From: Baffinella frigidus
Taxonomy: Eukaryota > Cryptophyceae > Cryptomonadales > Baffinellaceae
Length of the DNA: 28,128 nucleotides
Direction of reading: 5' to 3'
NCBI GenBank assembly: GCA_026770585.1
Contig: MU646322.1
Coordinates: 307,768 to 335,895 of the forward strand
The translations under genes and the position numbers were made by a program. Positions 70 to 21,247 of the stretch are shown here, in pieces. The notes beneath the pieces are model-generated. The model did no database searches and was not told the DNA's origin. It was given only the letters and a program-made list of their open reading frames with translations. Each line of letters starts with the position of its first letter. Positions within the stretch are counted from its first letter, which is position 1.

Positions 70-132
70 GTCCAAATCCCACCACGCACCCCACGCCCCG
101 TTCCCGTTCCCGGTGTCGTTACTCCCCAGGGC
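70..132 (-). CDS. SUMO protease putative exon 13 (or head copy)
   Basis: Acceptor cacag|GCC, possible donors at gtcgtc (after 70) or gtccaa (after 67). Reads ALGSNDTGNGNGAWGAWWD then LD. A second copy of its head starts at 32 and runs off the edge, so the fully intact exon may lie outside the window. Confidence 0.4.

Positions 133-21247: not shown

What the first reader, a model, noticed from the sequence alone, without database searches (positions are those of the whole stretch)
70..21247. Exon-edge duplication rule: head fragments upstream, one intact exon, tail fragments downstream
Seen: in the two main genes 15 of 26 exons have partial copies, about 40 fragments in all. Head copies (acceptor plus 5' part) always lie upstream in sense of the intact exon: SUMO protease exons 8, 9, 11; pseudouridine synthase exons 8-13. 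Tail copies (3' part plus, usually, the 5' splice site) always lie downstream: SUMO protease 2, 3, 8, 10; pseudouridine synthase 3, 5, 7, 9, 12, 13. One intact copy remains each time. Only exon 13 at the window edge cannot be judged. Inference: tandem duplications with one breakpoint in the exon and one in the flanking intron give this order automatically and leave the message unbroken, so introns grow without loss of function. I know of no description of this as a genome-wide intron-growth mode.
Basis: partly seen in the sequence, partly recalled or inferred. Interest (0 to 1): 0.92.

Follow-up and report, generated by a model that had tools for sequence, protein, structure and literature searches.

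The report
Exon-edge copies inside algal introns
In this alga about half of the exons examined have a broken copy of one end sitting in the next-door intron, nearly always on the side that leaves the real exon whole, which looks like the trace of a DNA-repair habit that lengthens introns.

Summary
The host is probably the cryptophyte Baffinella frigidus: my spliced pseudouridine synthase equals its annotated protein (419 aa). In the window 36 sense and 1 antisense partial copies beat every shuffle, from 14 of 24 mapped exons; 32 of 36 obey the rule as scored, 2 are internal, 2 carry the contrary label and fit on inspection. In 41 exons of other genes heads lie 26 up, 2 down and tails 26 down, 0 up (kinase loci, not looked at before scoring: 14:2 and 13:0); both exceptions are misdrawn exons. 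Non-coding pseudo-exons show almost no rule (heads 62:59, tails 88:52). So the rule is selection's mark on a duplication process that also runs in non-coding DNA. Homology fills 80% of the period in 8 of 208 pairs and under half in 168. The structure is segment, unrelated filler, segment, as expected if staggered breaks are repaired with filler; that step is inferred. A known kind of event with a clean exon signature.

The parts
9544..21247 (+). pseudouridine synthase gene, 14 exons: 9544-9900, 10244-10289, 11123-11184, 12006-12119, 12301-12355, 12989-13038, 13373-13429, 13939-14037, 15471-15569, 17117-17152, 17911-17967, 19160-19240, 19903-19977, 21176-21247
2125..9379 (-). Ulp1 (SUMO protease) gene, exons 1-10: 9379-9102, 8856-8721, 7872-7804, 6651-6558, 5933-5891, 5025-4929, 4293-4243, 3762-3685, 2405-2340, 2188-2125; further 3' exons lie at 1-1500 and were not fixed
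   Evidence: exon 5 and the donor of exon 4 placed by reading against P0078; exon 10 has no support from P0078
11723..11774 (+). tail copy of PUS exon 3, downstream
12518..12566 (+). tail copy of PUS exon 5, downstream
12701..12722 (+). second tail copy of PUS exon 5, downstream
13508..13528 (+). tail copy of PUS exon 7, downstream
13756..13836 (+). head copy of PUS exon 8, upstream
15116..15399 (+). three head copies of PUS exon 9, upstream: 15116-15144, 15216-15261, 15371-15399
15684..16226 (+). three tail copies of PUS exon 9, downstream: 15684-15743, 15849-15908, 16156-16226
17512..17788 (+). three head copies of PUS exon 11, upstream: 17512-17532, 17660-17676, 17768-17788
18960..19020 (+). 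head copy of PUS exon 12, upstream
19528..19701 (+). two head copies of PUS exon 13, upstream: 19528-19559, 19667-19701
20028..20661 (+). four tail copies of PUS exon 13, downstream: 20028-20066, 20135-20173, 20330-20368, 20623-20661
20426..20463 (-). the only antisense copy found: tail of PUS exon 13, inverted, downstream of the exon
20882..20912 (+). head copy of PUS exon 14, upstream
21475..21536 (+). copy of PUS exon 14, downstream; lacks the acceptor and runs on into the 3' UTR (scored 'head' by the rule, tail on inspection)
8420..8476 (-). copy of the 3' part of ULP exon 2, downstream (scored internal)
7185..7677 (-). three tail copies of ULP exon 3, downstream: 7677-7614, 7488-7448, 7223-7185; the nearest is the clearest contiguous tandem unit (about 190 bp)
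3967..4009 (-). head copy of ULP exon 8, upstream
2793..3586 (-). four tail copies of ULP exon 8, downstream: 3586-3526, 3439-3415, 3300-3263, 2830-2793
2538..2587 (-). near-complete copy of ULP exon 9, upstream, without donor (scored 'tail up' by the rule, head on inspection)
1599..1894 (-). three copies of the 3' part of ULP exon 10, downstream: 1894-1858, 1772-1723, 1622-1599 (the last scored internal)

Best explanation
The genome undergoes small local direct duplications, mostly of the form segment, unrelated filler (tens to hundreds of bases), same segment. The likely cause is repair of breaks with long staggered ends: both overhangs (those I can detect are about 30-150 nt) are filled in, and filler of mixed origin (other local sequence, small dispersed elements, telomere-like repeats) is joined between them. 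This happens in coding and non-coding DNA alike. When the duplicated segment spans one exon edge, one copy keeps the rest of the exon and the other becomes a fragment that lacks one splice site: tail fragments fall downstream, head fragments upstream. Events that break the exon or duplicate it whole are removed by selection. Repeated events lengthen introns. Shown: the fragments, the side rule in two further gene families, its near-absence in non-coding DNA, the direct orientation, the filler between copies. Inferred: staggered breaks, fill-in, the repair enzymes, net intron growth over time.
For: Window: 36 sense copies, 32 with the rule as scored, none against it after inspection. Other genes: 41 exons (14 Helicase_C, 27 kinase), heads 26 up/2 down, tails 26 down/0 up, p=2e-13; the kinase loci alone, not looked at before scoring, 14/2 and 13/0, p=2e-6; both exceptions explained by misdrawn exons. 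Pseudo-exons: heads 62 up/59 down, tails 88 down/52 up; rule-consistent 150 of 261 against 52 of 54 for exons (p=2e-9); whole or ambiguous copies 43 of 304 against 1 of 55 (p=0.007). Direct repeats outnumber inverted 187 to 13 in 35 loci, 185 to 12 once a stretch shared by two loci is counted once; 0 in shuffled sequence. Of 208 pairs with non-telomeric gap, 168 have homology over less than half of the period and 8 over at least 80%; of 23 at >=95% identity, 20 under half (169, 8 and 20 on recount). All 28 pairs of >=93% in a separate count had 27-629 bp between the copies (one pair counted twice, two are GA repeats). Of 16 young fillers looked at, 9 contain pieces found elsewhere in the same locus and 2 match elements present in several loci, one of them in both groups. 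In print, direct repeats at new Daphnia introns and flanking duplication at telomeric insertions in horse are attributed to staggered breaks (passages).
Against: Some cases are contiguous tandem units (ULP exons 3 and 10), and 18 of 45 nearest copies have some similarity between the gap and the sequence beyond the copy, so plain tandem duplication also contributes. Duplications of 30-150 nt are longer than the 4-12 bp repeats reported in Daphnia. No empty site, allele or relative was available to see an event before and after. Pseudo-exon tails lean downstream (88:52), which I do not fully explain. My own first idea that telomere-like tracts mark the breaks failed (0.404 vs 0.390; 0.150 vs 0.257).
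Confidence: 0.7

Rival explanations
1. Plain adjacent tandem duplication with one breakpoint in the exon and one in the intron; the filler is just diverged intron.
For: ULP exon 3 (about 190-bp tandem units) and exon 10; PUS exon 13 head with long flank homology; several gaps match the sequence beyond the copy at similar offsets.
Against: In the youngest class (>=95% identity), where decay cannot hide homology, 20 of 23 pairs match over less than half of the period; 0 of 28 pairs of >=93% were adjacent.
Confidence: 0.17
2. Copy-and-paste of exon pieces into nearby introns (templated insertion at breaks, or RNA-templated repair).
For: Gives separated copies and filler; many copies stop near the splice site (22 of 27 sample copies of >=90% identity end within 12 nt beyond the profile-defined edge or short of it).
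Against: Pasting should put tails upstream and heads downstream as well; observed 0 and 2 of 54, the 2 explained. Among copies of >=90% identity that reach the edge, the stop within 12 nt is no more frequent than at pseudo-exon edges (24 of 41 vs 32 of 60, p=0.69); over all identities an excess remains (46 of 75 vs 73 of 208, p=1e-4).
Confidence: 0.06
3. The fragments are functional (decoy splice sites, alternative exons) and are kept by selection.
For: Many heads keep an acceptor and many tails a donor.
Against: By inspection the fragments lack the partner splice site; identities run down to 0.73; duplicates occur at similar rates in non-coding DNA. No RNA was available.
Confidence: 0.05

Closest known systems
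Insertions by repair of staggered double-strand breaks in new Daphnia introns (PMC4202315; passages read)
   Same: Direct repeats flanking inserted DNA; a repeat of terminal exon bases at the far end of the intron; further internal breaks proposed to lengthen introns
   Different: Exon-intron repeats of 4-12 bp there, about 30-150 bp among those detectable here; there intron birth, here existing introns with repeated copies of both exon edges
Rice natural insertions: tandem and partially tandem duplications with local filler, attributed to asymmetrical nicks (Vaughn and Bennetzen 2014; seen only as described in the review PMC7407515, passages)
   Same: 10-1000 bp insertions, duplicated flanks, filler from sequence nearby
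   Different: No exon-edge side rule in the passages I saw; densities not compared
CST/Pol alpha fill-in tandem duplications (PMC8355091; abstract and outline read)
   Same: Fill-in of 3' overhangs at breaks, then end-joining, gives duplications
   Different: Small tandem duplications in human and mouse cells; separated copies with filler are the rule here; enzymes untested here
Interstitial telomeric repeat insertion at breaks in horse (PMC7215372; passages read)
   Same: Telomeric repeats inserted at breaks, at 3 of 66 loci with simple duplication of the target, at a few with inverted duplications
   Different: Here telomere-like tracts are common in introns but not enriched at the fragment ends
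Direct repeats near intron borders in 213 introns of many taxa (PMC11782384; abstract and outline read)
   Same: Repeats at exon-intron borders read as traces of insertion by break repair
   Different: 4-30 bp, mean 11.4, at the two borders of one intron; no head/tail fragment rule in the abstract

Membership tests
staggered-break insertion with target duplication | same segment on both sides of inserted DNA, direct orientation | tested here: met
   187 direct vs 13 inverted, 185 vs 12 on recount; filler between copies
staggered-break insertion with target duplication | empty site without the insert in a relative or allele | not testable with these tools
   no relatives of this genome held
staggered-break insertion with target duplication | filler from nearby sequence, elements or telomeric repeats | tested here: inconclusive
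   9 of 16 fillers with local matches, 2 with dispersed elements; the genome-wide filler search did not complete
simple tandem duplication | copies adjacent, homology equal to the period | tested here: not met
   met in 8 of 208 pairs, not in the others
introner or transposon insertion | filler belongs to a repeat family with shared ends and a short fixed target duplication | tested here: inconclusive
   fillers differ and 2 of 16 match an element present in several loci; duplications 38-149 bp. The sequence held is a very small share of the genome
exon-edge rule | heads upstream, tails downstream in unrelated genes | tested here: met
   52 of 54 as scored in 41 exons, exceptions inspected; kinase loci alone 27 of 29

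The most novel reading that the evidence does not exclude
Introns in this alga grow mainly by recurrent break-repair insertions with unusually long target duplications, so that exon edges leave a readable fossil record (order, age, direction) of intron growth; the same repair habit supplies telomere-like repeats that are locked to the transcribed strand.
Probability: 0.35. Interest if true: 0.8.

Novelty: new variant of a known kind. Interest (0 to 1): 0.62.

Why it matters
How introns get long other than by transposons is an open question. Here a duplicated exon edge is held against a constrained reference, so events can be counted, dated and oriented gene by gene. The contrast between exons (52 of 54) and pseudo-exons (150 of 261) separates mutation from selection within one genome, and the prediction can be tested directly in any annotated cryptophyte.

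Tried and rejected
Telomere-like tracts as mark of the breaks: not enriched at the broken ends. Anchoring of copies at the splice junction: looked striking, but against pseudo-exon edges it vanishes for copies of >=90% identity (24 of 41 vs 32 of 60, p=0.69); over all identities an excess remains (46 of 75 vs 73 of 208, p=1e-4), which faster decay of intron flanks could explain. The comparison (30 of 47; 58 of 87) had kept sample copies that end short of the edge; one search mends it. One search was wrong (masked letters matched each other) and was replaced. Head and tail copies of one exon breaking at nearly the same place (PUS13 35/36; ULP8 44 vs 39-40; PUS9 46 vs 39) remain unexplained; PUS14 (32 vs 2) does not fit.

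Left out of counts: of 16 Helicase_C matches, L023 (GC 0.24, probably foreign) and L033 (itself a broken copy beside L027), leaving 14. Of 130 kinase matches listed, 27 in 21 loci were used; I chose the places for short matches and fair E-values before any copy search. Within those loci two matches in L050 that repeat the profile range of the scored exon were treated as copies, and one match cut by the end of L039 was left out. The Helicase_C loci had been looked at by eye before the scoring rule was written down; the kinase loci had not. One search set aside 59 pairs with telomeric gaps; one search left out ULP exon 9, ULP exon 2 and one internal copy; one search skipped 69 low-complexity draws. 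Loci L030 and L035 overlap by 1,744 bases, so searches count that stretch twice; recounts for 66 and 68 are.

Literature: 9 searches listed no paper that describes partial exon-edge copies as an intron-growth mode; I judged by titles and abstract starts except for the five papers named. The library is open-access papers only.

Full report
What was checked. The finding says that partial copies of exons lie in neighbouring introns by a fixed rule: heads (acceptor plus 5' part) upstream, tails (3' part plus donor) downstream, one intact exon between. I rebuilt both genes. The pseudouridine synthase model of 14 exons gives 419 aa identical to an annotated protein of the cryptophyte Baffinella frigidus (P0001; exon table). 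The Ulp1 gene on the other strand matches Peptidase_C48, and its spliced model aligns with a Rhodomonas salina relative (P0078) through exons 1-9 at 42% identity. So which copy is the real exon does not rest on the rule itself, except for ULP exon 10. Whether RNA lies behind P0001 I do not know.

The observation in the window. A local-alignment search of 24 exons over the whole window, both strands, with a cut above the best of 30 shuffles, found 36 sense copies and 1 antisense copy from 14 exons. As scored, 12 are heads upstream and 20 tails downstream; 2 are internal and lie downstream; 2 carry the contrary label. On inspection the contrary two fit: the PUS exon 14 copy lacks the acceptor and runs into the 3' UTR, and the ULP exon 9 copy has the exon start but no donor. 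Identities run from 0.76 to 1.0, so these are not simply assembly duplicates.

Does it hold elsewhere? The window lies in a genome of 382 Mb. I took exons found by two Pfam families, Helicase_C and protein kinase, and scored them by a rule written down before the script was run; the helicase loci had been seen by eye before that, the kinase loci had not. In 41 exons: heads 26 up and 2 down, tails 26 down and 0 up, 1 ambiguous, 11 copies of flank only, 3 antisense; Fisher p=2e-13. The kinase loci alone give heads 14 up and 2 down, tails 13 down and 0 up, p=2e-6; the copies belong to 28 exon edges in all. Of the two exceptions, L046 matched telomere-like intron sequence inside a badly drawn core, and in L052 the core ran past the exon end, so that the copy is a tail. 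22 of the 41 exons have a head or tail copy as scored, 21 without L046. The sample is small (about 86 kb) and drawn from two families.

Mutation or selection? I drew 400 pseudo-exons from places away from the known exons in the window, L005 and the sampled loci, and scored them in the same way with a fixed score cut. 207 have a copy, but the rule is nearly gone: heads 62 up and 59 down, tails 88 down and 52 up (the tail excess may reflect unmarked exons). Whole or ambiguous copies are 43 of 304 against 1 of 55 for exons. Direct repeats occur at 2.5 per kb in the gene part of the window, 2.1 in 22400-28128, 3.2 in locus L005 and 2.1 in the sampled loci, with 0 in shuffled sequence. So exons are hit at about the general rate (24 of 41 have some sense copy), and the rule is what survives selection.

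How are the copies made? In a plain tandem duplication homology fills the period. It does so (80% or more) in 8 of 208 pairs with non-telomeric gap, and under half in 168; among pairs of at least 95% identity, where decay is no excuse, 20 of 23 are under half. Direct orientation outnumbers inverted 185 to 12 in the sampled loci. The structure is thus segment, filler, segment. Among 16 young fillers, 9 contain pieces present elsewhere in the same locus, 2 match elements found in several loci, others are telomere-like, simple repeats or unmatched. Contiguous tandem units exist too (ULP exon 3). Repair of staggered breaks with fill-in and filler would give all of this and the side rule. That mechanism is inferred; no empty site could be shown.

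What did not hold. I first thought telomere-like tracts marked the breakpoints; they do not. I then thought copies stop at splice junctions; for copies of at least 90% identity this is no more frequent than at pseudo-exon edges (24 of 41 vs 32 of 60), although over all identities an excess remains (46 of 75 vs 73 of 208).

Known or new. Insertions flanked by direct repeats and put down to staggered breaks are described for new Daphnia introns (passages of PMC4202315) and for some telomeric insertions in horse (passages of PMC7215372); partially tandem duplications with local filler in rice (through the review PMC7407515); repeats near intron borders in many taxa (abstract of PMC11782384); fill-in by CST and Pol alpha makes small tandem duplications in human and mouse cells (abstract of PMC8355091). 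Nine searches of an open-access library listed no account of the exon-edge signature. I did not compare the density with other genomes. I file it as a new variant of a known kind.

Noticed in passing
introns of both window genes; loci L021-L057: Telomere-like repeats are locked to the transcribed strand: 11,311 bases read CCCTAAA on the sense strand against 1,392 TTTAGGG in 35 loci; 30 loci with clear C-sense excess against 1 (L034), 4 undecided; two of the loci (L030, L035) overlap. Possible reasons, recalled and untested: TTTAG would act as a 3' splice site, CTAAA resembles a branch point.
   Followed up: partly
P0002 (metagenome protein, relative of the window's pseudouridine synthase): Its predicted protein contains a stretch that reads, by eye, like translated telomere-like repeat, so a related species may have such repeats in the same gene.
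   Followed up: no
window donors of the two genes: The 5' splice sites of the mapped introns share little beyond GT (by eye).
   Followed up: no
window 10866-11025 and 14116-14275; 19704-19795, 21988-22113, 22274-22390, 23614-23736: Two element families of about 80-160 bp that look palindromic by eye; the first pair is 94% identical.
   Followed up: no
PUS exons 9 and 13, ULP exon 8: Head copies end and tail copies begin at nearly the same exon position (46/39, 35/36, 44/39-40), as if from one break; PUS exon 14 does not (32/2).
   Followed up: partly
window 20426-20463: One inverted copy of the exon 13 tail among the direct ones.
   Followed up: no
L023 (G000:C1351): AT-rich contig (GC 0.24) with a helicase match and a very long open frame, probably not nuclear algal DNA.
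   Followed up: no
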